61,310 nt of DNA, taken from the IMG/VR virus record IMGVR_UViG_3300032360_000004, positions 1-61,310 of that record. One strand, given 5' to 3'. Shown one piece after another: positions 1 to 61,310 of the stretch. The translations under genes were made by a program, and so were the position numbers. Below the pieces are notes generated by a model. That model was not told where the DNA came from and searched no databases. It worked only from the letters and a program-made list of their open reading frames with translations. The DNA comes from a virus. Numbering within the stretch: the first letter of the stretch is position 1; each line of letters opens with the position of its first letter.

Positions 1-308
1 GCGAGGTGGACCGTAGTGTCATGGACCGGGTGACTAAGGTGTGCCTGGATACTGCCCGTGGTCAAACCATGATGATAGCCCAGCAACTACACGCAGCAGG
101 TACCACCAAGGGGGCTGCCCTGCGAGCTATAGCACTGGCCACTAACACCCCAGAGAATAAGACCCGCGAACTGTTGCGGTTCTTACAACGTATAGACGCA
201 GTAGAATCCTTTAGTACAGGTAAGGGTATCGGGGGCAATAAAGCCCGGTGGAGACTAACCGCTAAACTACAAACCCTATACACCACCGTACTGGGGGAAG
301 GGCAATGA
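1..308 (+). CDS. AAA-type ATPase/helicase, C-terminal part (continues the gene at 60096)
   Basis: This is the end of the gene that starts at 60096 and runs off the right edge. Bases 3-128 duplicate 61185-61310 and the reading frame continues exactly, so the full protein would be about 464 residues. The segment here looks like a small winged-helix domain: an alpha-helical stretch (GAALRAIALATNT, ENKTRELLRFLQRI) followed by a basic wing (GGNKARWRLT). Such C-terminal winged helices commonly bind DNA in phage replication ATPases. The stop overlaps the next start (ATGA), which suggests translational coupling with the sulfotransferase-like gene. A GTG inside the segment at position 6 is not the real start. 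Confidence 0.85.
   Translation, partial: EVDRSVMDRVTKVCLDTARGQTMMIAQQLHAAGTTKGAALRAIALATNTPENKTRELLRFLQRIDAVESFSTGKGIGGNKARWRLTAKLQTLYTTVLGEGQ
3..128 (+). repeat. Terminal direct repeat (left copy)
   Basis: Identical to 61185-61310. The real genome length is therefore about 61,182 bp. Confidence 0.95.
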
Positions 309-1201
309 CTATGACAACCCACGACTTAAGGTTGGACAGCCAATTAAACCTGGACCATGTGGAACACGTGGTGTCCATAGTGTCCTCGTCCCGTGCTGGC
401 AGCAGCCTGCTAAAGCACACCATGGCTCTGCACTCAGACCTATCCACATTGGCAGGGGAAGAGGAACCCTATTACAAGCTGGCCCACAACGGTTACCCGT
501 GGCACACCTGTGACGTGTTCCACAGTCTAAACGGATTAGACTACGTTAGGCTGCTTATGGCCAACGAACTGCACAACCACCAACAGCAGCACAACCGGGC
601 CTGGATACAATCACAAACGGTAGAAGAACCACCGTTCGTCCAGCCTAAACAGTGCCGTCTTACCCCCACCCTGTTGTTAAAGACTCCCCAGAACATATAC
701 CGCCGTGGGGTGCTGGAAGAACTATTTCCAGGGCGACGTATTAGTTACATCTACTTAACTCGTGGCTTTGCCCAAGTGGTTAACGGGCTTATAGATGGGT
801 GGTTGAGTGATGACTATAAAGCCCGGAAGACTGAGCAAGGGTGGTGGAAGTTTGATATGCCACCCGGTTGGGCATTCAGTCACCTCTACCAACGGTGCTA
901 CCACCAGTGGCGTATGGCTAACCTGTTTGGCCTTGGCGAGTACGATGATGCTAGCTACCGGTTAAAGTTTGAGGACTTTACACGTGATACTGATAGCGTG
1001 TGCCAACGGCTGTACCGTCTGCTGGGCCTGCCACCGCACTCAGTGCCACCCCTGGAAGACCTGCCCCACATCATGGCTACCAGTGCCCCCAAGCCACACA
1101 GGTGGCAGGGTAGAGCGTACTTGGCCAAACTGCTTGGCAGCCGGGCCGAACCTCTAATGACTAACTTAGGCTATAGCATGGACCAGTCTACATGGACATA
1201 A
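305..1201 (+). CDS. Sulfotransferase-like P-loop protein
   Basis: The 298-residue protein resembles PAPS-dependent sulfotransferases. Residues 27-34 (SSSRAGSS) form a loop like the 5'-phosphosulfate-binding loop. Residues 124-154 (LLLKTPQN, then FPGRRISYIYLTRG) match the usual 'lvlKtP ... fPdarfihlvRdP' strand that carries the 3'-phosphate-binding region, and LKFEDFTRDT near residue 222 fits the family's 'yEdL' segment. Sulfotransferases move sulfate from PAPS to a hydroxyl or amine. The substrate is unknown. The gene overlaps its upstream ATPase by 4 nt with a strong GGGGGAAGGG ribosome site, and overlaps the downstream AGPT-Pplase-like gene by 10 nt. That context suggests DNA-base modification, although modification of glycan or protein by the phage is equally possible. 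A kinase of similar fold is the main alternative. Confidence 0.7.
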   Translation: MTMTTHDLRLDSQLNLDHVEHVVSIVSSSRAGSSLLKHTMALHSDLSTLAGEEEPYYKLAHNGYPWHTCDVFHSLNGLDYVRLLMANELHNHQQQHNRAWIQSQTVEEPPFVQPKQCRLTPTLLLKTPQNIYRRGVLEELFPGRRISYIYLTRGFAQVVNGLIDGWLSDDYKARKTEQGWWKFDMPPGWAFSHLYQRCYHQWRMANLFGLGEYDDASYRLKFEDFTRDTDSVCQRLYRLLGLPPHSVPPLEDLPHIMATSAPKPHRWQGRAYLAKLLGSRAEPLMTNLGYSMDQSTWT

Positions 1202-2142
1202 TCGACTTTTGTAAGTTGTCTAAACTGAACATGGACAACTGCGACTTCGACTGTATCTACCCCCTAGTGACTGACCTAGCCAACCAAGGTGGGTGGAGTG
1301 ACAAAGATCGCCTGTGGTACTGCGTGCTGTACATGGTGTTTTACAATGAGTCGGCAGCCCTTACCTACTTCCATCATCCCAGGAGAGGGGCAACCCGGCT
1401 GCCCATAGACACAGCCCGTCGTTGCTTGCGTGGTGGCCGTATAGTACGCCACCTGGAAAGCTGGAAAGCCATTAGCCAAGGGCAGCACGTAGCCGACTAC
1501 CTATGTAACGGCTTTACAGATGACCGGGCAGCCAACTGGCACCAACTGCTGGACAACATACAGCAGGTATATGGAAACGGTAGGTGGGCAGGCTATACCA
1601 CGGCTGACCTGTTGCACAAGGTGTGTGGGTTACCCGTGCAGCCCACTAGCACAGGGTGGCGACAGAGTAGTGGTCCTAAGAATGGCCTGGAAAAGCTACC
1701 ACCCAATAAGCTGGCCCTAGACCAACGTGAGGGACATTGGCTTCGCAGGCTGGCACCCTTGGCACAGAAACACCTACGGCTGGCCTACTGGCCCGAGGGG
1801 TGGGATTACGGTGTGCTGGAGAGCCTGCTGTGTGACTGGGACGGGCTAACTAAGGGTGGCTATTACAGTGGCCGTAACCTGGACCGTATGCTCAACCGCA
1901 TGGGTAAGGTGTTGGATGTGACCGGCACCAGCAGCCCGTTGCTAAAGCAGATCCTAGAGAGTCGTCAGCGGGTGTACCCGGCTAACCAGTTAGGCGAACG
2001 GCATGGTTGGTACGCTATAGATCCCAAACGTAAGAAACACTACCTACAAACGGGGGAAGTATTATGTGGAGCAGAGGACCGCAAATCTATAACAGGTGCC
2101 ACCAGTTTAATGCAGTTCCTGGGCAGGCACTGGTGTGGGTAG
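1192..2142 (+). CDS. Putative alpha-glutamyl/putrescinyl thymine pyrophosphorylase, clade-3-like
   Basis: The 316-residue protein resembles the AGPT-Pplase clade 3 family, proposed to replace the pyrophosphate on activated hydroxymethyl-uracil in DNA with an amine such as putrescine or glutamate. What I see: an all-helical N-terminal half with GNGRWAGYTTADLL at 128-141, then ESLLCDWDGL at 210-219 and KGGYYSGRNLDRM at 221-233. These look like the conserved Cys-Asp-Trp and Gly-Tyr-Tyr blocks I recall for that family. The recognition is from memory of motifs, not alignment. The neighbours (sulfotransferase-like and ureohydrolase) and the separate kinase/hydroxymethylase cluster at 53-58 kb support a base-modification role. 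It overlaps the next gene by 79 nt in another frame. Confidence 0.5.
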   Translation: MDIIDFCKLSKLNMDNCDFDCIYPLVTDLANQGGWSDKDRLWYCVLYMVFYNESAALTYFHHPRRGATRLPIDTARRCLRGGRIVRHLESWKAISQGQHVADYLCNGFTDDRAANWHQLLDNIQQVYGNGRWAGYTTADLLHKVCGLPVQPTSTGWRQSSGPKNGLEKLPPNKLALDQREGHWLRRLAPLAQKHLRLAYWPEGWDYGVLESLLCDWDGLTKGGYYSGRNLDRMLNRMGKVLDVTGTSSPLLKQILESRQRVYPANQLGERHGWYAIDPKRKKHYLQTGEVLCGAEDRKSITGATSLMQFLGRHWCG

Positions 2143-2744
2143 ACGCCCACCCAGATTTCCACAGCAACGCCACCAGCATTAGCGGGTTCATAGGTGGCAA
2201 AGCCCTACACCGTATACGTAAGAAGTACGAGGCCATATACATACTGGGGGCACGCGACATAGAGCCTGGAGAGTTAGACAACATACGGGCCGAGGACCAC
2301 GTACACCTAGTAAGCGACGTGGACTACCTTGGCCTGCTGCCCAGTGGTGGCACTCACGTACATATAGACGGTGACGTGCTGGACCCACTGGTTAACCCAG
2401 ACGTGTCGTACCCGGTACGTTGGGGGTACACGGTGCAGGGCTTGGCTAACGTGCTGCTGCGGCTACCTGTAAGCCAGCTACAGGGCTGGTCGGTTAGTAA
2501 CATGGCCCCCGAGCTATTGGATGACCTGTGTAACCTGCTGCGTGGTCCTACGCTGTGCAGTGCTTGCGATGGCCCGTTCAACCTGGAAACCGAGGGTGGC
2601 CAGTGCGGTACCATCGGCACGTTTATAAACGTGGCCTTCTGCCCTACCTGCTTTGCAGGTATCTATGACATGGTGGACCAAATGAAACCACCCACCCCGT
2701 GCAACAAGTGCGACCGGGTGGGTGGGTGTGCGTCCCAGGGATGA
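2064..2744 (+). CDS. Arginase/agmatinase-family (ureohydrolase-like) protein with zinc-ribbon tail
   Basis: Two of the three metal-binding signatures of ureohydrolases are clear: WVDAHPDFHS at 25-34 (family DAHxD) and VHIDGDVLDPLVNP at 99-112 (family SxDxDxxDP), with an intervening ILGARDIEPGE like the family's 'IGvRdvdpgE'. Family members hydrolyse arginine to ornithine plus urea, or agmatine to putrescine plus urea, using two Mn ions. The usual N-terminal GGDHS region is missing: only about 26 residues precede DAHPD, and a lone His13 might substitute. Activity is therefore uncertain. The C-terminal 60 residues hold Cys pairs (CSAC, CPTC, CNKC) like a zinc ribbon, which is unusual for the family. 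The start has a strong GGGGGAAG site. Polyamine supply for base modification is an inference from neighbours. Confidence 0.72.
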   Translation: MWSRGPQIYNRCHQFNAVPGQALVWVDAHPDFHSNATSISGFIGGKALHRIRKKYEAIYILGARDIEPGELDNIRAEDHVHLVSDVDYLGLLPSGGTHVHIDGDVLDPLVNPDVSYPVRWGYTVQGLANVLLRLPVSQLQGWSVSNMAPELLDDLCNLLRGPTLCSACDGPFNLETEGGQCGTIGTFINVAFCPTCFAGIYDMVDQMKPPTPCNKCDRVGGCASQG

Positions 2745-12101: not shown

Positions 12102-12339
12102 CGGCTACACCCCCACACAGCAGGCCATGGTGGATGTGCTGGCTGACGGGCAGGCCCATACCCGGCAGGAGCTACACGCCTGCCTACCAGACGAGCTAGG
12201 CCCACTCAGCAACATTAACGCCCACCTGTGCAACGTGCGTAAACACCTACGCCCTATAGGCCAGGACATTGTGTGCGAGCTAGTTAACCGCAGGATCTGC
12301 TACCGCCATGTACGGTTACTGGCCAGTACACACGGGTAA
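12076..12339 (+). CDS. Small winged-helix DNA-binding protein
   Basis: The 87-residue protein begins with ATG six nt after GGAGGA. YTPTQQAMVDVLADGQAHTRQEL and NINAHLCNVRKHLRPIGQDIVCEL (residues about 11-75) match the helix and wing pattern of response-regulator-type winged helices used by many phages as small regulators. It likely binds DNA and may control late genes. The target is unknown. Confidence 0.65.
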   Translation: MMNSRTMTNGYTPTQQAMVDVLADGQAHTRQELHACLPDELGPLSNINAHLCNVRKHLRPIGQDIVCELVNRRICYRHVRLLASTHG

Positions 12340-12346
12340 ATAGTAA

Positions 12347-29526: not shown

Positions 29527-30236
29527 GGATATTTATTATTAACTACAACCGGCTGACCAGCACCCGCAATATGGTGGAGTACCTATTAACGCTACCTGAT
29601 GCCGACCCGGTTATCATAGACAACGCCAGCACCTATCCTCCCCTGTTACACTGGTATAACCACGCCTGCCCGGTGGAAGTAGAGTTAGGAACTGAGGATT
29701 TTGGACCACGTGTACTGTGGGCAAATCGTAGCCGCCTAATACCCCCCGGTAAGGTGTACGCTGTAACTGACAGCGACCTGGACCTCAGTGGTTGCCCGGT
29801 TGACCTGTTGCAGCACCTGACCAGTGGGCTGGATCAATACCCTGAGATACGCAAGGTGGGTGTATCTTTAGCCCTGGAAGACATACCTGATGACAACCCA
29901 CTACAAGAGTTTACACGCAACCGCGAGGCACGGTACTGGGAAGACGAACGGGATGACAAGTTTTATGACGCTGACGTGGCCACTACTTTTGCCGTCTACC
30001 GCTCACACGATGGGCAGCCTCCAGCCCACTATGGTCCAGCCTTACGCAGCAAAGCACCGTACCAAGCCCGGCACCTACCGTGGTACCTAACCCCGGACAC
30101 TATGACAGATGAAGATAGGTACTACCTGGACCGCATAAACCCAGCCTGGACGGGTATTGTTTTTAGCCGCCATCTACAAAATCACTTGGATACTTTGGGA
30201 CCGGCTAACTATAAGGAGGACGTGGCATATGACTAA
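29523..30236 (+). CDS. Glycosyltransferase-like protein
   Basis: The 237-residue protein starts at GTG overlapping the previous stop (GTGA). IFIINYNRLTSTRNMVEYLL and PVIIDNASTYPPLLHW are the typical nucleotide-sugar-binding start of GT-A folds, and YAVTDSDLDLSG near residues 78-90 holds a DxD-type metal motif. The acceptor and donor are unknown. Tight coupling with flanking genes shows it works in the same glycan pathway. Confidence 0.72.
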   Translation: MRIFIINYNRLTSTRNMVEYLLTLPDADPVIIDNASTYPPLLHWYNHACPVEVELGTEDFGPRVLWANRSRLIPPGKVYAVTDSDLDLSGCPVDLLQHLTSGLDQYPEIRKVGVSLALEDIPDDNPLQEFTRNREARYWEDERDDKFYDADVATTFAVYRSHDGQPPAHYGPALRSKAPYQARHLPWYLTPDTMTDEDRYYLDRINPAWTGIVFSRHLQNHLDTLGPANYKEDVAYD

Positions 30237-30999: not shown

Positions 31000-31715
31000 C
31001 CACGGTACCCCAGCGGTTCGACAATCTATTACCACGCACCTTAGAATCGTTGGCTGCTGGTGGCTTTGATAAGCCAAGGTTGTTTGTGGACGGTGTACAG
31101 AACGCTAGCCAGTATGACTATCTGGGCCTGGAAGTGACCACCCACTACCCCACCATACGGACCTACGGTAATTGGCTGTTGGCCCTATGGGAACTGTACA
31201 TACGCAACCCAGCGGCTGAGCGGTACGCAATATTCCAGGATGACATAATTACCTACCGCAATTTACGACGGTACCTGGAACAGACTACTTACACCCACGG
31301 TTCCCATGAACTGTACTACAACCTCTACACCTACCCGGTAAACCAAAGCCCTCCACCCAGTGAGGAGTATACCGGGTGGCACGCCAGTAACCAGATGGGT
31401 CGTGGTGCACTGGCCTTGGTGTTTAACCGTCCGGCAATTAGTACCCTGCTGGAACAGTCCCATATAATTTCCCACCCGCAGAATGCCCAACGTGGCTGGC
31501 GTAGTGTGGACGGCACAGTGGTGACAGCCTTTAAAGCTATCCAGTGGCTAGAGTACGTACACGCCCCCACCTTGGTGCAGCACACAGGTACCGACCTCAG
31601 TAGTATGAAGAACCGTGGATACCGTGAGCTACCTGAAACCTTTAAGGGTGAAGCCTACGACGCCCTTCAACTGCTACCCACCACTGAGTCAATAGAAGCA
31701 CAGCCATGCCCATGA
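30978..31715 (+). CDS. Glycosyltransferase-like protein
   Basis: The 245-residue protein overlaps the previous gene by 22 nt. WAYGVTTVPQRFDNLLPRTL and KPRLFVDGVQ resemble a GT-A start, and YAIFQDDIITYRNLRRYL near residue 80-98 carries the DD(I) metal-binding motif seen in capsular and LPS glycosyltransferases. A later GRGALALVFNRPAISTLLEQ is like the acceptor region. The sugar specificity is unknown. Confidence 0.72.
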   Translation: MRWAYGVTTVPQRFDNLLPRTLESLAAGGFDKPRLFVDGVQNASQYDYLGLEVTTHYPTIRTYGNWLLALWELYIRNPAAERYAIFQDDIITYRNLRRYLEQTTYTHGSHELYYNLYTYPVNQSPPPSEEYTGWHASNQMGRGALALVFNRPAISTLLEQSHIISHPQNAQRGWRSVDGTVVTAFKAIQWLEYVHAPTLVQHTGTDLSSMKNRGYRELPETFKGEAYDALQLLPTTESIEAQPCP

Positions 31716-33030: not shown

Positions 33031-33038
33031 CCTACACC

Positions 33039-51102: not shown

Positions 51103-53099
51103 TTATAAGCCTAGACACAGAAACTACTGGACTGGATCTACGGCATGGCAGCAGGCCATTCCTGGTGACCATGTACAACAGCGACGACGTTACCACGTGG
51201 TGGGAGTGGGACGTAGACCCACTAACCCGGCAGCCTGTTGTACCCCCCGGTGACCTGGAAGAGGTACAGCAAACTATAGACAGTGCCGAGTTTATAGTTT
51301 TGCAGAACGCTAAGTTCGATGTAGCTGCCCTACAGTCTGTTTACCACGGCACCCTGGAATGGGATTGGTCCAAGGTCTATGACACCCTGTTGGCTGGCCA
51401 CCTGTTAGCAAGCAACCACCCCCACGACCTGACCACTATGGCCCTGATGTACTTGGGTGTAGATATAAAGTCCCAGGACAACACCGTGCAACAAGCCTGC
51501 AACGAGGCCCGTCGTATAGCACGCAGCAGGTACCCAGATTGGTTAATAGCCCGTAGTGACGACCCGACCATGCCCAGTGCTAAGGGTTCCCTAGCTAAGA
51601 GCGATATGTGGTTACCTCGTGCTGTGGCCAAGGTAGAACACTACCCCACTAACCACCTGTGGCATACGGTGTGTGCCCGATACGCCAATGTTGATAGTGA
51701 GGTCACCCTCCACCTGTTTAACCGCCAACGGCAGCTATTAGAGGAGCGGGGCTTGTGGGATATATACCTGACCCGCCTACGGGTGCTACCTATTGCATAT
51801 GACATGGAGAGCCGAGGCATAACTATATGCCGAAGCCGCCTGGAACAACTACAACAGGAGTACACAGAGGAGAGTGGCCAAGCTGGCCGGGTGTGTGTCA
51901 ACATTGCTACTAGTTTTGGTGCGGACCTACGCCTACCTAAAGGGGGTAATAACAACAGCCTGCTTAGTACCGTGTTTGGCAGTATGGGACTGGAGCCTGT
52001 TAAACGGTCTAAGAAAACTGGTGCTCCCAGCCTGGACAAGCAAACTATAGAACACTACGAAGCTACCCTGCCCCCACGAAGTAGGGAACTAACATTCGTA
52101 CAGGCACTAAGACGCAAACGCAAACGCGACACAGCCCTGCAATACATGGAAGGCTATATAAGGTTCTGGCTGCCCTTAGACAGTGACCAGGACACCGGGT
52201 GGTACCGCTTGCACCCCAGCCTAAACCCAACAGGTACGGACACCCTGCGGTGGAGCAGTAGTAACCCCAACGAGCAGAACATCAGCAAGCAGGAAGGGTT
52301 TAACCTGCGGCACTGCTTTGGCCCAGCACCGGGCCGTGAGTGGTGGAGCCTGGATGCTAAGAATATAGAACTGCGTATACCCGCCTATGAGGCTGGGGAG
52401 ACCGAGATGGTAGACCTGTTCGAACGTAGTGACGAACCGCCCTACTACGGCAGCTACCATATGTTAATATTCGACACCCTGCATCCAGACAAGTTTGCCC
52501 AGTACGGTATGGAATGTAAACAGCGGTACGGCAGCACGTGGTACCAGTGGACCAAGAATGGAAACTTCGCTGTGCAGTACGGGGCAGTGGAAGCCAGCGG
52601 TACCGCTGACCGGGCCTATCATATACCGGGTGCCCAGCACCGCATACAGGAACGATTCTCTAAGGTGGCTGCTCTTAATACTAAGATGATAGAGTTCGCC
52701 ACCCAGCACGGTTACGTAGAGACCATGCCAGACCTGACCGTAGATCCCACCCGTGGCTACCCGCTGCTATGTACACTGAGCCAGTGGGGTGAAGTGCTGC
52801 CCACTGTGCCCCTGAACTACCACGTACAGGGAACAGCTATGTGGTGGATGATGAAGGCCATGTTGAGGTGCCAGGAGTACCTGGACACGTTACCCGGCTG
52901 CTACATGGTTATGCAGATACACGACGAACTGGTGTTTGACTTTCCACAAGGCAAGGGGCTACAGCCGTGGCGTACTAATATGCCCCGCATCCGCAGGATT
53001 AAAAGCCTGATGGAAGAGAGTGGTAAGGACCTAGGAATACCCACACCCGTCAGTTTAGAATATCACCCCACCACCTGGAGCGAGGGTATGGTCCTATGA
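51099..53099 (+). CDS. polA: Family A DNA polymerase
   Basis: The 666-residue protein has 3'-5' exonuclease motifs ISLDTETTGL (ExoI, near residue 3-12), LQNAKFDVAAL (ExoII) and CARYANVDSEVTL (ExoIII), and polymerase motifs WWSLDAKNIELRIPAYEAGE near 417-436 (motif A), KNGNFAVQYGA near 485-495 (motif B) and MQIHDELVFDFP near 605-616 (motif C). It replicates the phage genome. ATG 51099 overlaps the previous stop. The Phe in NFAVQYG indicates normal discrimination against dideoxynucleotides. Its ability to use hydroxymethyl-dUTP is unknown. Confidence 0.95.
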   Translation: MIISLDTETTGLDLRHGSRPFLVTMYNSDDVTTWWEWDVDPLTRQPVVPPGDLEEVQQTIDSAEFIVLQNAKFDVAALQSVYHGTLEWDWSKVYDTLLAGHLLASNHPHDLTTMALMYLGVDIKSQDNTVQQACNEARRIARSRYPDWLIARSDDPTMPSAKGSLAKSDMWLPRAVAKVEHYPTNHLWHTVCARYANVDSEVTLHLFNRQRQLLEERGLWDIYLTRLRVLPIAYDMESRGITICRSRLEQLQQEYTEESGQAGRVCVNIATSFGADLRLPKGGNNNSLLSTVFGSMGLEPVKRSKKTGAPSLDKQTIEHYEATLPPRSRELTFVQALRRKRKRDTALQYMEGYIRFWLPLDSDQDTGWYRLHPSLNPTGTDTLRWSSSNPNEQNISKQEGFNLRHCFGPAPGREWWSLDAKNIELRIPAYEAGETEMVDLFERSDEPPYYGSYHMLIFDTLHPDKFAQYGMECKQRYGSTWYQWTKNGNFAVQYGAVEASGTADRAYHIPGAQHRIQERFSKVAALNTKMIEFATQHGYVETMPDLTVDPTRGYPLLCTLSQWGEVLPTVPLNYHVQGTAMWWMMKAMLRCQEYLDTLPGCYMVMQIHDELVFDFPQGKGLQPWRTNMPRIRRIKSLMEESGKDLGIPTPVSLEYHPTTWSEGMVL

Positions 53100-54001
53100 A
53101 GATTGAACAGGTGGCCAAGCTGTCACCACAGGCACGGCTATTATACTGGATACGTGAGCGGCACCAGATTTACCTACGTCGTAAAGCTGGCAAGCCTACA
53201 CCGTGGACCGATGACCAGATACTACAAACAGCCTTCTTTACAAATCCCTACCGTGAGCACGACCGTACTACTATCTGGCTCAGGGAAAACTTTAGGGATG
53301 AGCATAGAAAGCAACCCAGTGTAGTAACTGGGACCATTATATATAGGTGGTTCAATCGCATAGAGACGGGGCAAGTGTTGCTACAACATGGCCTGTTGAC
53401 TAGGTGGAAGCCCCGGCTTGCCATGAGAGTGCTGGGGGAGTTGGCCAAGCCCTTCACCAGTGCCTACATCATTAGCACCCGGTCAGCCCCCAAGGGTACC
53501 AGTAAGCTGGAAGCCGTCTGTAACTATATAGACCAAGTGTGGAACCACAGGACAAGACTGCCAGCCAGGATAGAGACCTGCGGCACCATGCAGCAGACTG
53601 TGGACATACTTAAACAGTATGAAGGGCTAGGACCGTTCATGTCTTACGAGATAGCCTGCGACCTGAGATACACCCGCTACTTACAGGATGCCCCAGACGT
53701 TACTACATACACACAGGTAGGACCGGGTGCTCGCAGGGGCTTATACCGTCTCCAGGGATTACAACCCAAGAAGCGGCTCAACCGTAACACCGGGGGCACT
53801 GGCTGGTACGGGGCCAGTCAGCCAACCCTGGAAGACGAAATAGGAACTGTGCAACAAGTCATGCAGCTTATTAATGGGGGAACTAAGATCCGAGTCCCCG
53901 TGTTTGAAATGAGGGAGGTGGAACATAGTCTGTGCGAGTGGGATAAGTATGAACGGGTGTTACAGGGAGAACGACCCAAACGTAAATACATGGGAGCCTA
54001 G
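53096..54001 (+). CDS. 5-hmdU DNA kinase helical / AGPT-Pplase clade-2-like protein, copy 1
   Basis: The 301-residue protein has the family pattern FFTNPYREHDRTT near residues 47-59, YEGLGPFMSYEIACDLRYTR near 177-196, VGPGARRGLYRLQG near 210-223 and FEMREVEHSLCEWDKYERVL near 269-288. These appear in proteins proposed to add amines or other groups to 5-hydroxymethyluracil in DNA or to form the helical part of the hmdU DNA kinase. It overlaps the polymerase stop (ATGA) and is followed by a paralogue and then by the P-loop kinase. Assignment is by remembered motifs, and activity is not proven. Confidence 0.8.
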   Translation: MKIEQVAKLSPQARLLYWIRERHQIYLRRKAGKPTPWTDDQILQTAFFTNPYREHDRTTIWLRENFRDEHRKQPSVVTGTIIYRWFNRIETGQVLLQHGLLTRWKPRLAMRVLGELAKPFTSAYIISTRSAPKGTSKLEAVCNYIDQVWNHRTRLPARIETCGTMQQTVDILKQYEGLGPFMSYEIACDLRYTRYLQDAPDVTTYTQVGPGARRGLYRLQGLQPKKRLNRNTGGTGWYGASQPTLEDEIGTVQQVMQLINGGTKIRVPVFEMREVEHSLCEWDKYERVLQGERPKRKYMGA

Positions 54002-54003
54002 TT

Positions 54004-54903
54004 ATGTTGAGTGAGCAAGTGGCCAAGCTAACATCCAGGGACAGGTTTATTTATTGGATACGTGAACGGCACCAGATATATAGGAAACGCAGGGCAGGCC
54101 AGATTGCACCGTGGACAAATGACCCGGTGCTGCGACAATACTTCTTTACCAACCCGTACCGGGAGAACGACAAGGTAACCCAGTGGTTCAGGCAGCACCT
54201 GCGGGAACCCCTGCGGGATGATCCCCGTGTGCTGTTTGCCACCGTGGCCTTTAGGTGGTTTAACCTGCCTAGTACGGGCTGTGCGTTGATGCACTACCCC
54301 AGTGAGGGTAAATGGCCGGGTTTACTGGGCAAGTGGCGTACAGGGGCAGCCACGGCCCTTCTAGGGGGCTTGAAAGAACAGGGTAAGGTGTTTACCGGGG
54401 CATTCAACATATCCGCCAGCGGCAGTACCAAGCCCAAGGTCAACCGGGTGTGTGAGGACTACATAGAACCCGTGTGGAGGGACCGTGCCAACCTGCTGCA
54501 CCGGGTAGAGGGTTGTACCACCCTGCAGGATGCCCACGCCCTGCTAAGGCAATACACCGGGCTGGGTGGTAGTGGCTTTATGGCCTACGAAATCATATGC
54601 GACCTGCGGTATACCTACCTGCTGGAAGACGCCACTGACATATGCACCTGGACCAACCCCGGTCCGGGCTGCCACCGTGGGCTGGCCCGCCTGGAAGGGC
54701 AAAGCCTACAGGGGGCACGACGGGTGAAGGTGGATGAACCACTAATAAAGATGCGGGACTTGCTGGCGTACACCCGTAGACGGCTACCGTCGATGCAGTT
54801 TGAAATGCGGGAGATAGAGCACAGCCTATGTGAGTACGATAAGTATGAGCGAGCACGGCTTAGCGAAGGACACCTTAAAAGAAAGTACCACCCCTCCTCA
54901 TGA
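54004..54903 (+). CDS. 5-hmdU DNA kinase helical / AGPT-Pplase clade-2-like protein, copy 2
   Basis: The 299-residue protein is a paralogue of the one upstream: FFTNPYRENDKVTQWF near residues 46-61, LGGSGFMAYEIICDLRYTYL near 182-201, NPGPGCHRGLARLEGQ near 218-233 and FEMREIEHSLCEYDKYERAR near 265-284. The two share the start (EQVAKLT/S, YWIRERHQIY). Two copies may have different roles, one as kinase partner and one as transferase, or may act together. The gene overlaps the kinase by 4 nt. Confidence 0.8.
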   Translation: MLSEQVAKLTSRDRFIYWIRERHQIYRKRRAGQIAPWTNDPVLRQYFFTNPYRENDKVTQWFRQHLREPLRDDPRVLFATVAFRWFNLPSTGCALMHYPSEGKWPGLLGKWRTGAATALLGGLKEQGKVFTGAFNISASGSTKPKVNRVCEDYIEPVWRDRANLLHRVEGCTTLQDAHALLRQYTGLGGSGFMAYEIICDLRYTYLLEDATDICTWTNPGPGCHRGLARLEGQSLQGARRVKVDEPLIKMRDLLAYTRRRLPSMQFEMREIEHSLCEYDKYERARLSEGHLKRKYHPSS

Positions 54904-55445
54904 CTGTGATTGATATACGTGGCACCCATGGCAGTGGTAAGAGTTGGTGTATGCACCAGCTACTAGACCAGTACGAACACCAACCCATAACTGAGGAAGG
55001 CAAGCACATAGGATACACACTGCCTGACCTGGAAGCAGCCTTGGTAGGTAAGTACGCCACAGTGACCGGGGGTTGTGACGGGGTGGGAACAGCCGATGAG
55101 GTGGTCCGCCGGGTCAGGCTGTTCGCCAGCCAGTACAGGTACGTATTACTAGAGGGGATATTAGTGTCCCACTCATTCAAGCGGTACCACGAGCTAGCCC
55201 TGGAAGTGGGTGACTACCGGTGGTTGTTTATGTCTACACCACTGCGGAACTGCATAGCCCGTGTGCGTGCCAGGAGAAGAGCACGTGGCAACCTGAAACC
55301 ACTAAGCCCACACAACGTAATTAAGGACCACGTCAGCGTGTGGACCAACATACAACGCAAGGCTCGGGACGCAGGCCACCGGGTGGTGGTGGTGCCGTGG
55401 CGTGACCCGCTGCCCACTGTGCTGCACGAACTGGGAGTATCCTAG
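54900..55445 (+). CDS. P-loop kinase, probable 5-hmdU DNA kinase
   Basis: The 181-residue protein has Walker A GTHGSGKS (8-15) and a Walker B-like YVLLEGILVSHS near 84-95, plus an Arg-rich segment RVRARRRARGNLKPL near 125-139, as in small nucleotide/DNA kinases. Kinases of this type convert hydroxymethyluracil in phage DNA to a phosphorylated form. Overlap with the AGPT-type gene (ATGA) and proximity to a TS-type hydroxymethylase support this. A chloramphenicol-phosphotransferase-like small-molecule kinase is the alternative. Confidence 0.7.
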   Translation: MTVIDIRGTHGSGKSWCMHQLLDQYEHQPITEEGKHIGYTLPDLEAALVGKYATVTGGCDGVGTADEVVRRVRLFASQYRYVLLEGILVSHSFKRYHELALEVGDYRWLFMSTPLRNCIARVRARRRARGNLKPLSPHNVIKDHVSVWTNIQRKARDAGHRVVVVPWRDPLPTVLHELGVS

Positions 55446-56473: not shown

Positions 56474-56923
56474 ATGCCCCCAGAAACTTTGCCCCCAAGC
56501 CAAGAAAAGCCGCCAATCGTGTACCTTGCGGTGCCCTACAGCCATGCGGATCCGCTGGTGATGGAGGCCCGTTACCGGGCTGTCACCCACGCAGCCGGGC
56601 GATTGCTGGCACAGGGACGGCACGTGTTCAGCCCCATCACCCACACCCACCCCATAAAGGTAGCTGCCGGTCAGGTTGACCTGTGGGACTCCTGGGCAGC
56701 GTACGACACTGCCGTCATGACCAACCTGTGTAGCAGCATGGTGGTACTATGCCTAAAGGGGTGGCGTACCAGTACCGGGGTGCGTGCTGAAAGACAACTG
56801 GCTCGATCCCTGGGACTGCCTATCAGCTACCTGCTGCCCCAGCATTGTGGCCTCCGCCCCAGATACCCGTACCAAGACTGGCAGCCGATGATCCCCGATA
56901 TCCCAACCCGTCCCAACGCCTAA
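56474..56923 (+). CDS. DUF1937 / nucleoside 2-deoxyribosyltransferase-like protein
   Basis: The 149-residue protein begins at ATG 56474 with TGGAG upstream. IVYLAVPYSHADPLVMEARY near residues 15-34 and GRHVFSPITHTHPIKVAA near 48-65, then WDSWAAYDTAVMTNLCSSMV near 74-93, follow the fold of deoxyribosyltransferases and DNPH1-type N-hydrolases ('vylA.Pys....v...R...v......L...G..vfsPi..'). Such enzymes cut or exchange the base of deoxynucleotides. In this context it may clear or recycle hydroxymethyl-dUMP or dNMPs. It precedes the hydroxymethylase gene by 41 nt. Confidence 0.75.
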   Translation: MPPETLPPSQEKPPIVYLAVPYSHADPLVMEARYRAVTHAAGRLLAQGRHVFSPITHTHPIKVAAGQVDLWDSWAAYDTAVMTNLCSSMVVLCLKGWRTSTGVRAERQLARSLGLPISYLLPQHCGLRPRYPYQDWQPMIPDIPTRPNA

Positions 56924-56964
56924 AACCAGTATCCCAACCGTCCCAGCCCGTCCCAAGGTATTCC

Positions 56965-58098
56965 ATGCACTACCAGTACCGTAATGTAAATGATGCGTTT
57001 GTTGGGCTTGTCCAGGCTATTCACACTGGGGAACTGCCCACGGTGGTGACACCCAGCCGGGCCGGTGAAGTCATGATGGTACCCCACCCGGTGCTGGTCA
57101 GTTACACCCACCCACTGGAGCGGGTGCTGCTGCACACAGGCCGGGACGCTAACCCGTTCTTCCACCTCTTTGAAAGTCTGTGGATGTTGGCCGGGTGCAA
57201 CACCGTGGCTCCACTGCTGTACTACAACAGCCGCATAGCAGCCATTGCCAGCGATGACGGCAAGACGTTTAACGGTGCCTACGGTTACCGCTGGCGACAC
57301 CCCGTGGACCAGCTAGCCGTTATCATTGAACACCTACGGGCCACGCCTGGAAGCCGTCGTGCCGTATTGCAAATGTGGAACACGCAGGATGACCTACTGC
57401 GGGTGGATGATACTAAAGACGTGTGCTGCAACACGCACGTGTACTTTAGCGTGGAACAGGGCACGTGTCCTGACTGCAACGGCACTGGCTATAACAGTGT
57501 GTGGAGCTTGGGCACCCAAGGACCAGAGCCTTGCACACGGTGCAACGGCTTACCCCACGACCAACCCACCTACCTGAACATGACCGTATGCAATAGGAGC
57601 AACGATCTGCTGTGGGGTTTGCTGGGTGCCAACGTGGTCCACTTCAGTGTGCTGCAAGAATACGTAGCCCTGAGCCTGGGATTACAGGTTGGCACCTACT
57701 ACCAGTTTACTAACAACCTGCACGTGTACACCGAAAGGTGGACCCCGGAAAAGTGGTCTGCCTTTGAGCGGTCCAAAGGGCAGGCACCTTACGCACTTCC
57801 ACAGGCCAAGCGTGTACCGTTGGTAGAGCAGCCGGACAGGTTCAATGCAGAGTGTAAGCAGTTTGTGGACGGGCCACTCATACCGCCAACCCTTGTAGGA
57901 GAGGGGCGGTTTAACTGGAAGGAGCCGTTCTTACAACACGTGGCTGCTCCCATGTGTTGGGCCTACCGTCTATACAAGCAACGGGAATACGCCCTAGCTT
58001 TAAGAACTGTGGACGAGGTGTGGGACCGTGACTGGCGGACTGCCGCTACCAACTGGATACAAAAACGGCAGGCCCGGTATCTGGATAAGTCATCATAA
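56965..58098 (+). CDS. Thymidylate-synthase-family nucleotide hydroxymethylase with zinc-ribbon insertion
   Basis: The 377-residue protein matches the thymidylate synthase fold: FHLFESLWMLAGCNTVAPLL near residue 68-87, FNGAYGYRWRHPVDQLAVII near 98-117, LQMWNTQDDL, the nucleophile block DVCCNTHVYFSV (Cys155), then LNMTVCNRSNDLLWGLLGAN, and YYQFTNNLHVY. The CNTH form instead of PCH is typical of phage deoxynucleotide hydroxymethylases. Between them residues 168-193 hold CPDC and CTRC pairs, a DnaJ-like zinc insertion. It is therefore probably a dUMP (or dCMP) hydroxymethylase; dUMP fits the neighbouring hmdU genes. ATG 56965 was chosen over an upstream start that overlaps the previous gene. Confidence 0.85.
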   Translation: MHYQYRNVNDAFVGLVQAIHTGELPTVVTPSRAGEVMMVPHPVLVSYTHPLERVLLHTGRDANPFFHLFESLWMLAGCNTVAPLLYYNSRIAAIASDDGKTFNGAYGYRWRHPVDQLAVIIEHLRATPGSRRAVLQMWNTQDDLLRVDDTKDVCCNTHVYFSVEQGTCPDCNGTGYNSVWSLGTQGPEPCTRCNGLPHDQPTYLNMTVCNRSNDLLWGLLGANVVHFSVLQEYVALSLGLQVGTYYQFTNNLHVYTERWTPEKWSAFERSKGQAPYALPQAKRVPLVEQPDRFNAECKQFVDGPLIPPTLVGEGRFNWKEPFLQHVAAPMCWAYRLYKQREYALALRTVDEVWDRDWRTAATNWIQKRQARYLDKSS

Positions 58099-58652
58099 TG
58101 ATTTTACCTACAGCAGTACGCAGCAAACGCAATTTCGTAGAGCGGTACCAGCGGGGTGAGTTCGGAAACCGCAGCCCTACCTGGAATGACCTAACGGAAT
58201 GCCTAGCTAGCGGGTACACGGGATTGGTACATATCCGTAACCGGGTACGTGGTGGGGCTACATGGTATGACGTGCCTCACGGGGGGCTACAAGATGCGTG
58301 GAAGCACGCTGTTGATAAGTGCGGCAAGATCCACCTATACATAAGTGCAATGGCCCCAACGGACCGCACCGTGCTCCAGGGAGAAGTACAGCAGGGCTAC
58401 CACGGGCTGGATCTATATTACACCACCGTAGCTCAACCCATGCGGCAGGCACTAGCCACCAGCAGCAGGCAGGTACGTGGTATAATGGCTAGTTGGCTAC
58501 TGCGGTACCACCTGTGTCCTAATAGCCATGACTGGCTGTTGTACCTGCTGGACGCCTACCCCAATCACGTGGTGGAGTTTAGTGCGTACGAAAGACCATG
58601 GGGAACAGTACCGGGGCACAACACAGTCTTCTGGGAAGTCCGTCAATACTAA
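58098..58652 (+). CDS. Conserved hypothetical protein in the modification cluster
   Basis: The 184-residue protein overlaps the hydroxymethylase stop (TAATG). FGNRSPTWNDLTECLASGYT near residues 22-41, GLVHIRNRVRGGATWYDVPH, YISAMAPTDRTVLQGEVQQG and CPNSHDWLLYLLDAYPNHVV look conserved and enzyme-like, with several Arg and His. I do not know a function. Its coupling with the hydroxymethylase suggests a role in the nucleotide or base-modification pathway, perhaps with the AGPT-type proteins. Confidence 0.65.
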   Translation: MILPTAVRSKRNFVERYQRGEFGNRSPTWNDLTECLASGYTGLVHIRNRVRGGATWYDVPHGGLQDAWKHAVDKCGKIHLYISAMAPTDRTVLQGEVQQGYHGLDLYYTTVAQPMRQALATSSRQVRGIMASWLLRYHLCPNSHDWLLYLLDAYPNHVVEFSAYERPWGTVPGHNTVFWEVRQY

Positions 58653-58669
58653 TAGAGGGAGCAAGCACT

Positions 58670-59167
58670 ATGGACCCAACACAATACCAACAACTGGCAG
58701 CACGCACTGAGTGTGACCAGGAAGCAGCCCGACAACGTGTAGCAACCGACAATATGTTACGCACCACCCGGCTGCTGCACGCCTGCTTAGGATTGTCTGG
58801 AGAGGTAGGTGAGTTGTCTGCTGCTGCCGAACGCTGGGTGTACTACGGGCACGACCTGGATGCAGGTAATGTAAAGGAGGAGGTAGGTGATTGCCTGTGG
58901 TACCTAGCCCTAGCCTGTAACGCCCTAGGCTTGGACATGGCACAGGTGATGGAAGCTAACATAGCTAAGCTGCGTCAGCGGTACCCTTCTAAGTATAGTG
59001 ACGACCAAGCCCTGGAAGTTAACCGTGACCGGGCAGCAGAACGCAGCATAGTGGAAGGTGTCCCCGACAGTGACCAAAACCCCATGGTACAAAATGGCCA
59101 AGGCTGGGCCGAGCCACCTTGGGGATTTAATGCCCACCGATTAGATAACGATAACTGTGATGCTTAG
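58670..59167 (+). CDS. MazG-like nucleotide pyrophosphohydrolase
   Basis: The 165-residue protein starts at ATG 58670 after GGGAGCAAGC. GLSGEVGELSAAAERWVYYG near residues 43-62 and KEEVGDCLWYLALACNALG near 71-89 supply the E-x2-E and E-x2-D helices of the MazG family; the C-terminal part (ANIAKLRQRYPSKYSDDQA) also matches. It hydrolyses nucleoside triphosphates to monophosphates. In a base-modifying phage such an enzyme could remove unmodified dTTP or dUTP. Confidence 0.88.
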   Translation: MDPTQYQQLAARTECDQEAARQRVATDNMLRTTRLLHACLGLSGEVGELSAAAERWVYYGHDLDAGNVKEEVGDCLWYLALACNALGLDMAQVMEANIAKLRQRYPSKYSDDQALEVNRDRAAERSIVEGVPDSDQNPMVQNGQGWAEPPWGFNAHRLDNDNCDA

Positions 59168-59203: not shown

Positions 59204-60103
59204 GTGCCTGTTAAAGATGATAAACCCCCCGAGAAGCTCAGACCGTTTATATTCCACGGGGTGGACCTGTCCTGGTCTTCAGGAGATAACAACGCCATGG
59301 CAGACTGTCCCCTATGTGGCCGGGAGGGCCGGTTCGGGGTGAAGATAGAGACCGGCGAATATAACTGTTTCAAGTGTGGGGAGACTGGTAACGCGACTGT
59401 GTTTCTGCGTTGGTTGTGGGACACCAGCACACAGGCAACCACTACGGAGCAGTACCGGCAGTTAGCTACTGACCGGGGTTTGTTAATGCCTGACTGCCTG
59501 ATCCACTGGGGCATCTGTGTGAGTGCTATTACAGGGGACTGGCTGGTACCCGGTTACAACTCCAAGGGTAACCTGTGCCAGCTATACAGGTACCTGCACA
59601 CGGCCAAGGGGGCACGCCTGCTGCCCACGCCCACCATGGGGCACCAGCTACACGGTGGGAACCTATATAACGGGAAGAAGCCGCTGGTGTATATATGTGA
59701 GGGACCTTGGGACGCCATAGCCCTGTGGGAAATGCTGAGCATGGCCCGGTATAAGGAGGAGGATGAACGGCTGGCTCCAACGGCTAACATCAGCAACAGC
59801 CTGCTGGCACAGGCTAACGTGGTAGCGGTGCCGGGCTGCACTACTTTCGCCAAGGCATGGCTACCCCTGTTTGCTGGCAAGGTGGTGGTGTTGATGTATG
59901 ACAACGACCACCCCCGCACTCATCCGTCCACTGGTAAGACTGTAGCCCCGGCAGGCTATGCTGCCATGCAACGGGTAACCCGGTTGCTAATGTCAGCCCA
60001 TAAGCCACCCCAGGAAATTAACTATCTATGTTGGGGTGAGGATGGAGGCTACGACCCCAACCTACCCAGCGGTACAGACGTAAGGGATATGCTAGATGCC
60101 TAG
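59204..60103 (+). CDS. DNA primase (CHC2 zinc finger plus Toprim)
   Basis: The 299-residue protein uses GTG 59204 with AAGGAG upstream. CPLCGREGRFGVKIETGEYN and CFKCGETGNATVFLRW (residues about 35-71) form the zinc-binding domain. VYICEGPWDAIALWEML near 165-181 and KVVVLMYDNDHPRTH near 225-239 are Toprim Glu and DxD motifs. It makes RNA primers. It overlaps the following ATPase gene by 8 nt, so primase and ATPase/helicase probably act together. Confidence 0.92.
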   Translation: MPVKDDKPPEKLRPFIFHGVDLSWSSGDNNAMADCPLCGREGRFGVKIETGEYNCFKCGETGNATVFLRWLWDTSTQATTTEQYRQLATDRGLLMPDCLIHWGICVSAITGDWLVPGYNSKGNLCQLYRYLHTAKGARLLPTPTMGHQLHGGNLYNGKKPLVYICEGPWDAIALWEMLSMARYKEEDERLAPTANISNSLLAQANVVAVPGCTTFAKAWLPLFAGKVVVLMYDNDHPRTHPSTGKTVAPAGYAAMQRVTRLLMSAHKPPQEINYLCWGEDGGYDPNLPSGTDVRDMLDA

Positions 60104-61310
60104 ACCACCAATAACCAACGACACAACCACTAACGTCATAGACCGTATACGCAACCTGGAAGCCCTGTTGGATCTGACTAAGGGGGTGCCCAAATCCTGG
60201 AAGACGGCTAAGGCCAGCAGCAACGGGCAAGCTACTGACGACGATGATACTTCAGTGGACCTAACCGGGGGTGACATGGACTCCCTGCCCTGCACCAGCT
60301 ATAAGGTGCTAATTAATGCGTGGCGTAGGGCACTGCGTTGGACTGATGGACTGGACCGTGCTCTAAGTGTTATGCTGGCCAGCATCACCAGCACGAAAAG
60401 TGTTGGCGACCAGCTATGGATAAAGATCATAGGTCCAGCCGCTTGTGGTAAGAGCACCCTGTGTGAAGCTGTTAGCGTCAATAAGGATTACGTGTTGGCC
60501 AAGAGCACCATCCGGGGCTTTCATAGTGGGTGGCGGGAAACCGGTGAGGACAGTGAGGATAATAGCCTAGTGGCCATGGTGGCAGGCAAGACGTTAGTAA
60601 CTAAGGACGGGGACACGCTGCTGCAAAGCCCCAACCTAAGCCAGATACTAGCCGAGGCCCGTGACCTGTACGACAGCACCAGCCGTACCCATTACCGTAA
60701 CACTATGAGCAAGGACTATAGCGGTATCCGCATGACGTGGCTGCTATGCGGCACCAGTAGTCTACGCAGCATAGACGAGAGTGAACTGGGTGAGCGGTTC
60801 TTGGACTGCGTAATCATGGACGGCATAGATGATGACCTGGAAGACGAGGTGCTGTGGCGGGTGGCTAACCGGGCTGACCGTAACCTAGCTATAGAGGCGG
60901 ACGGTGGGCCTGAAACTCACTACGAGCCTGAACTGGCTACAGCTATGAGGTTAACCGGGGGATATGTAACCTACCTGAGGACCAACGCTAAGACCCTACT
61001 GGGTACCATTACCAGTCCCACGTGGGTACTAAGACGGTGTACCCAGCTTGGTAAGTTTGTGGCTTTCATGCGAGCACGCCCCAGCCTCCGCCAGGAGGAG
61101 ACGGCCGAGCGTGAGTTCGCCGCCCGGTTAGTGAGCCAACATATACGGCTGGCCAAGTGCCTAGCTGCTGTGATGAACCGTAGTGAGGTGGACCGTAGTG
61201 TCATGGACCGGGTGACTAAGGTGTGCCTGGATACTGCCCGTGGTCAAACCATGATGATAGCCCAGCAACTACACGCAGCAGGTACCACCAAGGGGGCTGC
61301 CCTGCGAGCT
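60096..61310 (+). CDS. AAA-type replication ATPase/helicase, N-terminal part (continues at 1-308)
   Basis: The gene starts at ATG 60096 inside the primase end and runs off the right edge; it continues at position 3 after the terminal repeat to a stop at 306-308. Walker A IIGPAACGKST is at residues 111-121. KTLVTKDGDTLLQ near 166-178 may be Walker B. MTWLLCGTSSLRSIDESELG near 223-242 holds a sensor and Arg-finger-like residues. It resembles phage helicases paired with primases. The C terminus is a winged helix. Window part about 405 residues of about 464. Confidence 0.85.
   Translation, partial: MPRPPITNDTTTNVIDRIRNLEALLDLTKGVPKSWKTAKASSNGQATDDDDTSVDLTGGDMDSLPCTSYKVLINAWRRALRWTDGLDRALSVMLASITSTKSVGDQLWIKIIGPAACGKSTLCEAVSVNKDYVLAKSTIRGFHSGWRETGEDSEDNSLVAMVAGKTLVTKDGDTLLQSPNLSQILAEARDLYDSTSRTHYRNTMSKDYSGIRMTWLLCGTSSLRSIDESELGERFLDCVIMDGIDDDLEDEVLWRVANRADRNLAIEADGGPETHYEPELATAMRLTGGYVTYLRTNAKTLLGTITSPTWVLRRCTQLGKFVAFMRARPSLRQEETAEREFAARLVSQHIRLAKCLAAVMNRSEVDRSVMDRVTKVCLDTARGQTMMIAQQLHAAGTTKGAALRA
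61185..61310 (+). repeat. Terminal direct repeat (identical to 3-128)
   Basis: The last 126 bases are the same as bases 3-128. One base earlier the two copies differ (T at 61184, C at 2), a synonymous change in a Ser codon. This is what a circular or circularly permuted genome looks like after assembly. Confidence 0.95.

What the first reader, a model, noticed from the sequence alone, without database searches (positions are those of the whole stretch)
305..2744. Sulfotransferase, AGPT-Pplase-3-like and ureohydrolase genes in one operon: possible polyamine-based DNA base
The three genes overlap each other and follow the replication ATPase directly. AGPT-Pplase family members are linked to putrescinyl- and glutamyl-thymine. 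A ureohydrolase could produce putrescine (from agmatine) or ornithine (from arginine) for such a base. A sulfotransferase could act on the product. I know of no described phage DNA pathway with all three.
Basis: inference. Interest (0 to 1): 0.92.

Follow-up and report, generated by a model that had tools for sequence, protein, structure and literature searches.

The report
Sulfotransferase–arginine-enzyme pair in phage DNA modification
A virus of bacteria carries an operon for chemically rebuilding thymine in its DNA, and next to the expected enzymes sits a pair not described there before, a sulfate-transferring enzyme and an arginine-cutting enzyme, which many other uncultured phages and two bacteria also carry together, so these phages may decorate DNA with an arginine-derived, sulfated group.

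Summary
The three overlapping genes are real and follow the replication ATPase directly. Gene 1 is a sulfotransferase (ST). Gene 2 is not AGPT-Pplase-3 but its sibling ADDT, amino acid:DNA transferase (PF18724). Gene 3 is a short, N-terminally truncated arginase-family protein. The same genome has the rest of a thymidine-hypermodification pathway: thymidylate-synthase-type hydroxymethylase, two 5-hmdU-kinase helical domains and a P-loop kinase.

A close ST family (15 phage contigs, 2 bacterial genomes) is always accompanied by a guanidino-group hydrolase: arginase-like in 4, the unrelated arginine-deiminase/DDAH fold in 13. The two swapped at least twice on the ST tree, which implies equivalent jobs. 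Among 49 ADDT loci, ST and hydrolase were both present (6) or both absent (43). The closest solved relatives of both hydrolase types act on N-omega-substituted arginines.

Best reading: a two-gene cassette (ST plus guanidino hydrolase) that makes or finishes an arginine-derived, sulfonated substituent on a pyrimidine; in this phage ADDT couples it to 5-hmdU in DNA. Putrescine specifically is not supported. The modified base itself is unproven. No annotated phage record or paper in the libraries searched shows this combination.

The parts
305..1201 (+). Sulfotransferase (PAPS-type fold), gene 1 of the operon
   Evidence: PF13469 2e-10 over cut-off; predicted structure (pLDDT 73.7, pTM 0.80) matches PAP-bound tyrosylprotein sulfotransferase and STF9 at Z 15.4; 5'-PSB S-R-A-G-S, GEEEP, KTP and 3'-PSB Arg conserved in 17 of 17 relatives
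1192..2142 (+). ADDT, amino acid:DNA transferase, gene 2
   Evidence: PF18724 1.4e-14 over cut-off; relatives in actinophages next to TET/JBP and 5-hmU kinase genes and in 49 IMG/VR loci
2064..2744 (+). Arginase-family guanidino hydrolase, N-terminally short, with Cys-rich C-terminal tail (about residues 160-226), gene 3
   Evidence: PF00491 5.1e-13 over cut-off; D27-x-H29-x-D31 and D102-x-D104 metal-ligand pairs kept; low-confidence model (pLDDT 56.7) best matched by N-omega-hydroxy-L-arginine hydrolase 6lug, Z 11.1, other arginases close behind
53096..54001 (+). 5-hmdU DNA kinase helical domain, copy 1
   Evidence: PF18723 2.2e-49
54004..54903 (+). 5-hmdU DNA kinase helical domain, copy 2
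   Evidence: PF18723 1.6e-48
54900..55445 (+). P-loop kinase, probable 5-hmdU DNA kinase catalytic subunit
   Evidence: PF18748 2.8e-4, below cut-off; its relative in L010 at the same place next to HMUDK_hel scores 4.1e-13
56845..58098 (+). Thymidylate-synthase family protein, probable dUMP hydroxymethylase
   Evidence: PF00303 4.8e-18; Asn kept in the LLGAN motif where dCMP hydroxymethylase has Asp (by eye, from knowledge of the family)
58598..59167 (+). MazG nucleotide pyrophosphohydrolase, possible dNTP pool enzyme
   Evidence: PF03819 8.2e-10
60096..61310 (+). Replication ATPase, 5' part; the gene continues across the contig ends to 308
   Evidence: open ORF with P-loop GPAACGKST; terminal 128-bp repeat with one mismatch
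3..308 (+). Replication ATPase, 3' part, overlapping the sulfotransferase start by 4 nt

Best explanation
The operon is part of a thymidine-hypermodification pathway that carries a new two-enzyme cassette. By family knowledge, the thymidylate-synthase-type enzyme makes 5-hydroxymethyl-dUMP, which enters DNA; the HMUDK_hel/P-loop kinase proteins phosphorylate 5-hmdU in DNA to a pyrophosphoryl-type leaving group; ADDT replaces it with an amino-acid nucleophile. The added part is the cassette: a guanidino hydrolase (here arginase-like; in most relatives arginine-deiminase/DDAH-like) acting on arginine or, more likely, an N-omega-substituted arginine, and a PAPS-dependent sulfotransferase that sulfonates the substrate or product of that step. 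Predicted outcome: 5-methyluracil bearing an arginine-derived nitrogen side chain with a sulfo group. SHOWN: gene families, intact key residues in the relatives, co-conservation of ST with hydrolase, replacement of one hydrolase fold by another. INFERRED: that ADDT's nucleophile is arginine or made from it, that the ST sulfonates the base side chain, and the order of the steps.
For: ADDT plus 5-hmdU kinase domains plus hydroxymethylase in one genome. All 17 members of the close ST family have a guanidino hydrolase nearby; in 12 the two genes abut or overlap (gap -29 to +1 nt, 8 with the same 10-nt overlap), and in three ADDT sits between them. The ST search used ST patterns only, so the partner was not selected for. 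Among 49 ADDT loci ST and hydrolase are both present (6 loci, 5 phages) or both absent (43). On the ST tree the partner changes between arginase and ADI/DDAH fold at least twice on starred branches; window (arginase) groups with L001 and L013 (ADI) at 100/99. ADI/DDAH-like members keep catalytic Cys, His, Glu and Asp and both carboxylate-binding Arg in 12 of 12. The arginase-like group's best solved match by profile is N-omega-hydroxy-L-arginine hydrolase (1.7e-20; arginases follow closely at 2.7e-20), and its Cys86 aligns with the Cys that replaces the metal-ligand His in L010, L017 and L018. ST keeps 5'-PSB Arg/Gly, Glu52, Lys126 and Arg153 in 17 of 17; structure Z 15.4 to PAP-bound sulfotransferases.
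Against: No chemistry was observed and no isolate exists. The ST has Gly instead of the usual Ser eight residues after the 3'-PSB Arg in all 17 members, so cofactor use could differ. Arginase- and ADI/DDAH-type hydrolysis give different products (ornithine and urea versus citrulline and ammonia or amine), so a single common final base is not guaranteed. The window's arginase-like protein lacks the N-terminal part with the GGDH segment and could be impaired. The cassette occurs in bacteria (L017, L018) and in large phages without any detected ADDT, so its direct substrate need not be DNA.
Confidence: 0.5

Rival explanations
1. Arginine as a masked amine donor: ADDT (or a thymidylate-synthase-like enzyme in the large phages) links arginine through its guanidino nitrogen to the 5-methylene; the hydrolase cuts the N-omega-substituted arginine, leaving 5-aminomethyl-dU (DDAH-type) or 5-ureidomethyl-dU (arginase type); the ST then N-sulfonates the remaining nitrogen.
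For: Both hydrolase types have closest solved relatives specific for N-omega-substituted arginine (DDAH; N-omega-hydroxyarginine hydrolase); the carboxylate-binding Arg of DDAH are invariant; the Glu that holds unsubstituted guanidinium in arginase is not conserved in the arginase-like group.
Against: Characterised ADDT reactions known to me link amino acids by an amine or a serine hydroxyl, not a guanidine; does not explain the obligate ST-hydrolase pairing where no transferase is seen (bacteria).
Confidence: 0.2
2. One reading: the ureohydrolase supplies putrescine or ornithine for an alpha-putrescinyl/ornithyl-thymine as in phage phiW-14, and the sulfotransferase is secondary.
For: phiW-14 builds putrescinylthymine in DNA from 5-(hydroxymethyl-O-pyrophosphoryl)uracil, labelled by [5-14C]ornithine (PMC5977210); an arginase would give ornithine.
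Against: Gene 2 is ADDT, not aGPT-Pplase3; gene 3 is far below the agmatinase cut-off; no decarboxylase family reaches its cut-off in the genome; most relatives carry an ADI/DDAH-type enzyme instead, which does not yield ornithine or putrescine; it leaves the invariant ST unexplained.
Confidence: 0.1
3. The ST-hydrolase pair makes a free small molecule (for example an N-sulfo-arginine-derived metabolite) used for something other than DNA, such as host take-over, and lies beside ADDT only by operon sharing.
For: The pair occurs without ADDT in Rugamonas brunnea and a Parcubacteria MAG next to an MTS methyltransferase and in large phages without a detected ADDT.
Against: In phages it keeps company with pyrimidine chemistry: overlapping ADDT in 5 of the 7 ADDT-bearing phages (directly with ST or hydrolase), kinase and thymidylate-synthase-like genes in the others.
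Confidence: 0.15
4. The ST sulfates 5-hydroxymethylpyrimidine itself, making a sulfate leaving group that serves as an alternative to the kinase-made pyrophosphate; the hydrolase trims the amino acid that displaces it.
For: ST also occurs with hydroxymethylase-type (thymidylate-synthase family) genes and no ADDT.
Against: In the window, L010, L013 and L016 the ST coexists with HMUDK_hel and kinases, so a second activation route would be redundant.
Confidence: 0.05

Closest known systems
Thymidine hypermodification pathways of phages M6, ViI and relatives (5-hmdU kinase, ADDT, tailoring enzymes; Lee et al. 2018, 2022, from my own knowledge)
   Same: 5-hydroxymethylase, 5-hmdU kinase domains and ADDT; tailoring genes beside ADDT
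   Different: Known tailoring enzymes are, as I recall, radical SAM, PLP-dependent, FAD-dependent and acetyltransferase enzymes; here the tailoring pair is a sulfotransferase and a guanidino hydrolase
alpha-Putrescinylthymine of Delftia phage phiW-14 (PMC5977210)
   Same: Post-replicative amine displacement of a pyrophosphorylated 5-hmdU
   Different: aGPT-Pplase-type genes rather than ADDT (from memory); amine from ornithine/putrescine; no sulfotransferase described
TET/JBP-ADDT-kinase clusters of actinophages (Tonitrus, Wooper; annotated aGPT-Pplase2; PMC11955845)
   Same: Homologous ADDT (25-28% identity) next to a DNA kinase
   Different: TET/JBP oxygenase makes the hydroxymethyl base; no ST and no guanidino hydrolase
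N-omega-hydroxy-L-arginine hydrolase (PDB 6lug; D-cycloserine pathway, from my own knowledge)
   Same: Arginase fold; Cys in place of the metal-ligand His in L010, L017 and L018; best structural and profile match
   Different: Works on a free amino acid with an N-oxygenase; no DNA or sulfotransferase link
DDAH / arginine deiminase (PDB 3bpb, 3rhy)
   Same: Fold and catalytic Cys-His-Glu/Asp set of the alternative hydrolase
   Different: Phage members are far below the NCBIfam dimethylargininase cut-offs and form their own family
Tyrosylprotein sulfotransferase, STF9 and CurM sulfotransferase
   Same: Fold, 5'-PSB, Glu and Lys of the active site
   Different: Gly instead of Ser at position +8 of the 3'-PSB; acceptor unknown

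Membership tests
ADDT (PF18724), gene 1192-2142 | Profile score over the curated cut-off | tested here: met
   54.9 bits against 26.2
ADDT (PF18724), gene 1192-2142 | Transfers an amino acid to activated 5-hmdU in DNA | not testable with these tools
   needs enzyme assay
aGPT-Pplase3 (PF18746), gene 1192-2142 | Profile score over the curated cut-off | tested here: not met
   13.4 bits against 25; ADDT is the better family
PAPS-dependent sulfotransferase (PF13469), gene 305-1201 | Profile score over cut-off and sulfotransferase fold | tested here: met
   41.8 bits against 27; Z 15.4 to STF9 and TPST1, 225-245 residues aligned, rmsd 3.9-4.6
PAPS-dependent sulfotransferase (PF13469), gene 305-1201 | 5'-phosphosulfate loop, Glu and Lys of the active site, 3'-PSB Arg | tested here: met
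   R30, G32, E52, K126, R153 in 17 of 17
PAPS-dependent sulfotransferase (PF13469), gene 305-1201 | Ser eight residues after the 3'-PSB Arg (3'-phosphate contact in classical members) | tested here: not met
   Gly161 in 17 of 17; so PAPS use is likely but not assured
Arginase family (PF00491), gene 2064-2744 | Profile score over cut-off; DxHxD and DxD metal motifs | tested here: met
   49.6 bits against 22; DAHPD and DGD in window, all four relatives
Arginase family (PF00491), gene 2064-2744 | GGDH segment (first metal-ligand His) | tested here: not met
   absent in the window (profile match starts at 112); Cys in L010, L017, L018
N-omega-hydroxyarginine hydrolase type, gene 2064-2744 | Cys replacing the metal-ligand His | tested here: inconclusive
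   met in L010, L017, L018; in the window a Cys lies 15 residues before DAHPD but the spacing is shorter
Agmatinase, gene 2064-2744 | NCBIfam TIGR01230 cut-off | tested here: not met
   15.7 bits against 174.3
Arginase proper (rocF), gene 2064-2744 | NCBIfam TIGR01229 cut-off | tested here: not met
   29.4 bits against 227.6
5-hmdU DNA kinase (PF18723), 53096-54001 and 54004-54903 | Profile score over cut-off | tested here: met
   168.7 and 165.9 bits against 25
phiW-14-type putrescinylthymine pathway | Putrescine source (decarboxylase) in the phage | tested here: inconclusive
   no decarboxylase family over its cut-off in the genome, but the host could supply putrescine

The most novel reading that the evidence does not exclude
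A widespread phage cassette (sulfotransferase plus guanidino hydrolase of either of two folds) installs the first known sulfonated, arginine-derived nucleobase in DNA, attached either after replication by ADDT or at the nucleotide level with thymidylate-synthase-like enzymes.
Probability: 0.35. Interest if true: 0.92.

Novelty: new variant of a known kind. Interest (0 to 1): 0.8.

Why it matters
Phage DNA hypermodification is known to use sugars, amines, amino acids and deazaguanines, mostly to evade restriction. A sulfo group would add fixed negative charge to the base and would be a new kind of chemistry in DNA. The obligate pairing of a sulfotransferase with a guanidino hydrolase across phages and two bacteria, with one hydrolase fold replaced by another, points to an undescribed two-step conversion of arginine or a modified arginine. 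That makes a concrete, testable prediction: specific nucleoside masses, PAPS dependence, and an arginine label in DNA. It also gives genome annotators a marker pair for finding such phages.

Tried and rejected
Single-protein searches of viral contigs with the window ADDT and arginase found nothing; alignments were needed. No relatives of ST, arginase-like or ADI-like proteins of this kind in annotated phages; the only phage-collection hit of the Parcubacteria arginase was two unannotated Staphylococcus records at 26% identity, not followed. Plasmid hits were ordinary arginases at 27%. Searches of 399 genomes from the order of Rugamonas and 287 from the Parcubacteria-side phylum found no further close ST; 13 weaker ST hits have no hydrolase neighbour within about 1.5 kb. 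PDB sequence search with the two-member ST alignment gave nothing useful. The arginase model is weak (pLDDT 56.7; residues 1-14 and 161-226 below 50), so its Z scores only support the arginase superfamily, and the lead of N-omega-hydroxyarginine hydrolase over true arginases is within a tie (11.1 against 10.6; profile 1.7e-20 against 2.7e-20). I considered amidinotransferase for the ADI-like group: the profile search against solved structures returned DDAH and ADI chains, which does not exclude it. I considered that the arginase-like ORF begins in another frame or is joined by frameshift to upstream sequence: no arginase-like N-terminus is visible in the other frames of 1950-2260. Papers that define ADDT chemistry are not held, so statements on known ADDT reactions are from my own knowledge.
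Full report
Observation. The ORF before them (3-308) is the end of a gene that starts at 60096; the record's first and last 128 bases are a direct repeat with one mismatch, so the contig is very likely a complete circular or permuted phage genome and the operon does follow the replication ATPase. It is a virus record with no near relative among annotated phages over its first 24 kb.

Identity of the three genes. Gene 1 is Sulfotransfer_3 (2e-10). Gene 3 is Arginase (5.1e-13), but only from profile position 112 on, so the segment with the GGDH motif is missing; its start at 2064 has a good ribosome-site-like run before it. The C-terminal 65 residues are Cys-rich and unmodelled.

The rest of the pathway is present. 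At the other end of the record are two HMUDK_hel proteins (2.2e-49, 1.6e-48), a P-loop kinase with weak similarity to 5-hmdU kinase, a thymidylate-synthase-family protein, MazG and a DUF1937 protein. With ADDT this is the core of a thymidine-hypermodification pathway as I know it from the M6/ViI literature, which is not held here. A published summary that 5-hmdU in DNA is phosphorylated by a 5-hmdU kinase and then modified by alkylamine transferases is in PMC6449724.

Relatives of the operon. Starting from the ST, one phage contig turned up (L001, 51% identity): it has ST, ADDT and, in the third place, not an arginase but an ADI-family protein (8.6e-7) whose best solved relatives are dimethylarginine dimethylaminohydrolases (9.5e-14). 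Two-, three- and seven-member alignments then gave L010, L013 (with L014 and L015, one phage), L016 and L038-L048, and two bacterial loci, L017 (Rugamonas brunnea) and L018 (a Parcubacteria MAG). L010 repeats the window's arrangement closely: HMUDK_hel, P-loop kinase, ST, ADDT, arginase-like, plus a second, degenerate arginase-like gene lacking DAHxD.

The constant element. Counting near-identical records once, there are 15 phages and 2 bacteria. All 17 have a guanidino hydrolase by the ST: arginase-like in the window, L010, L017 and L018, ADI/DDAH-like in 13 (in L038 the gene is cut by the contig end and was judged by eye; in L013 and L048 it is 1561 and 709 nt away). In 12 the two genes abut or overlap (gap -29 to +1), and in 8 they share the same 10-nt overlap. 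ADDT is present in 7 phages (window, L001, L010, L013, L016, L046, L047); it was not found elsewhere in the L039-L045 and L048 records. As a control from the other side, 49 ADDT loci found with ADDT patterns carried both ST and hydrolase (6 loci, 5 phages) or neither (43), never one alone; nearly all have a TET/JBP oxygenase or 5-hmU-type kinase. Flanks of some loci are short and some records are near copies, so I give no p-value. Weaker, bacterial ST hits have no hydrolase beside them.

Non-homologous replacement. On an ST tree the window (arginase partner) groups with L001 and L013 (ADI partner) at 100/99, with L010 (arginase) outside them at 99/93; the labels need three changes, at least two on starred branches. 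Two unrelated folds in one slot imply the same job, and what they have in common is hydrolysis of a guanidino group. In 12 of 12 complete ADI/DDAH-like proteins the residues aligned with the DDAH catalytic Cys, His, Glu and Asp, and the two Arg that in DDAH hold the substrate carboxylate, are invariant (the roles are from my knowledge of DDAH). The arginase-like profile's best solved match is N-omega-hydroxy-L-arginine hydrolase (1.7e-20; T. thermophilus arginase 2.7e-20), and that enzyme's Cys86 aligns with the Cys of the family's GDC motif, where arginases have the metal-binding His. The weak window model also ranks that enzyme first (Z 11.1, 157 residues, 3.9 A; T. thermophilus arginase 10.6). 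The Glu that binds guanidinium in arginase is not conserved. Together this suggests, but does not prove, that the substrate is an N-omega-substituted arginine with a free carboxylate.

The sulfotransferase. The model (pLDDT 73.7) matches STF9, PAP-bound tyrosylprotein sulfotransferases and the curacin ST at Z 15.1-15.4. In 17 of 17 the 5'-PSB Arg-x-Gly, the Gly-Glu of the acceptor site, the Lys of K-T-P/S and the 3'-PSB Arg are kept, but the position of the usual Ser (Arg+8) is Gly, preceded by an invariant Asn. The family is thus a coherent, probably PAPS-using branch of its own.

Other platforms. In L038-L045 and L048 the neighbourhood is a roughly 165-aa P-loop kinase, ST, ADI-like, a divergent thymidylate-synthase-like protein (profile 2.1e-6 to solved thymidylate synthases; phrog_5131), an APH-type kinase and a second thymidylate-synthase-family gene; not every gene is present in every locus. 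In the bacteria the pair follows an MTS-domain methyltransferase. So ST plus guanidino hydrolase is the core cassette, and ADDT is one of several partners.

Mechanism. I take it that 5-hmdU in DNA is activated by the kinase proteins, ADDT attaches an arginine-derived nucleophile, and the hydrolase and ST trim and sulfonate the guanidino-derived part, before or after attachment. The families and the pairing are shown; the substrate, the order and the sulfonated base are inferred. The putrescine version is less likely: gene 3 is far from agmatinase, no decarboxylase family passes its cut-off (the only signal, 10.3 bits at 35537-35704, lies in the DegT-type aminotransferase), and most relatives use an enzyme type that does not give ornithine. 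In phiW-14 the putrescinyl group was labelled by [5-14C]ornithine but not by arginine (PMC5977210), so that system also does not call for a phage arginase.

Novelty. The ST and hydrolases have no PHROG family and no relative in 50,697 annotated phage records at the sensitivity used. No held paper combines phage DNA modification with a sulfotransferase or reports a sulfated DNA base under the terms tried. Because the core papers are not held, I cannot exclude that their supplements mention such a neighbourhood. I rate it a new variant of a known kind, phage pyrimidine hypermodification, with an undescribed enzymatic core.

Noticed in passing
window 1-128 and 61183-61310: 128-bp direct terminal repeat with one mismatch (position 2): circular or permuted genome, and the ATPase gene spans the join.
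   Followed up: yes
L010:9096-9572: Second arginase-like gene directly after the first, with DAHxD degraded to ADEPN: probably a catalytically dead paralogue.
   Followed up: partly
L038-L045, L048: Large-phage operon with kinase, ST, ADI-like protein, divergent thymidylate-synthase-like protein, APH-type kinase and a second thymidylate-synthase gene: possible nucleotide-level hypermodification.
   Followed up: partly
L018:9400-9450 and 12290-12340: The methyltransferase remnant, ST and arginase cassette in the Parcubacteria scaffold is flanked by the same gene segment on both sides, as if inserted with a duplication.
   Followed up: no
L017:9237-12099: Rugamonas brunnea chromosome carries an MTS methyltransferase, ST and complete arginase-like gene (GDC motif) without ADDT.
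   Followed up: partly
window 27628-36508: Glycosyltransferases, NAD epimerase/dehydratase, DegT-type aminotransferase and methyltransferase in a row: a sugar-modification cluster after the tail genes.
   Followed up: partly
window 53096-54903: Two tandem HMUDK_hel genes separate from the P-loop kinase, whereas the domains are, as far as I know, usually fused.
   Followed up: no
window 46585-47142: Phage-encoded uracil-DNA-glycosylase-superfamily protein in a phage expected to carry modified uracil in its DNA.
   Followed up: no
window 56462-56923: DUF1937/DUF4406 protein directly before the hydroxymethylase gene; possibly nucleotide metabolism.
   Followed up: no
actinophage records PP978825, OP910132 and others: Genes annotated aGPT-Pplase2 or hypothetical are homologues of this ADDT.
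   Followed up: partly
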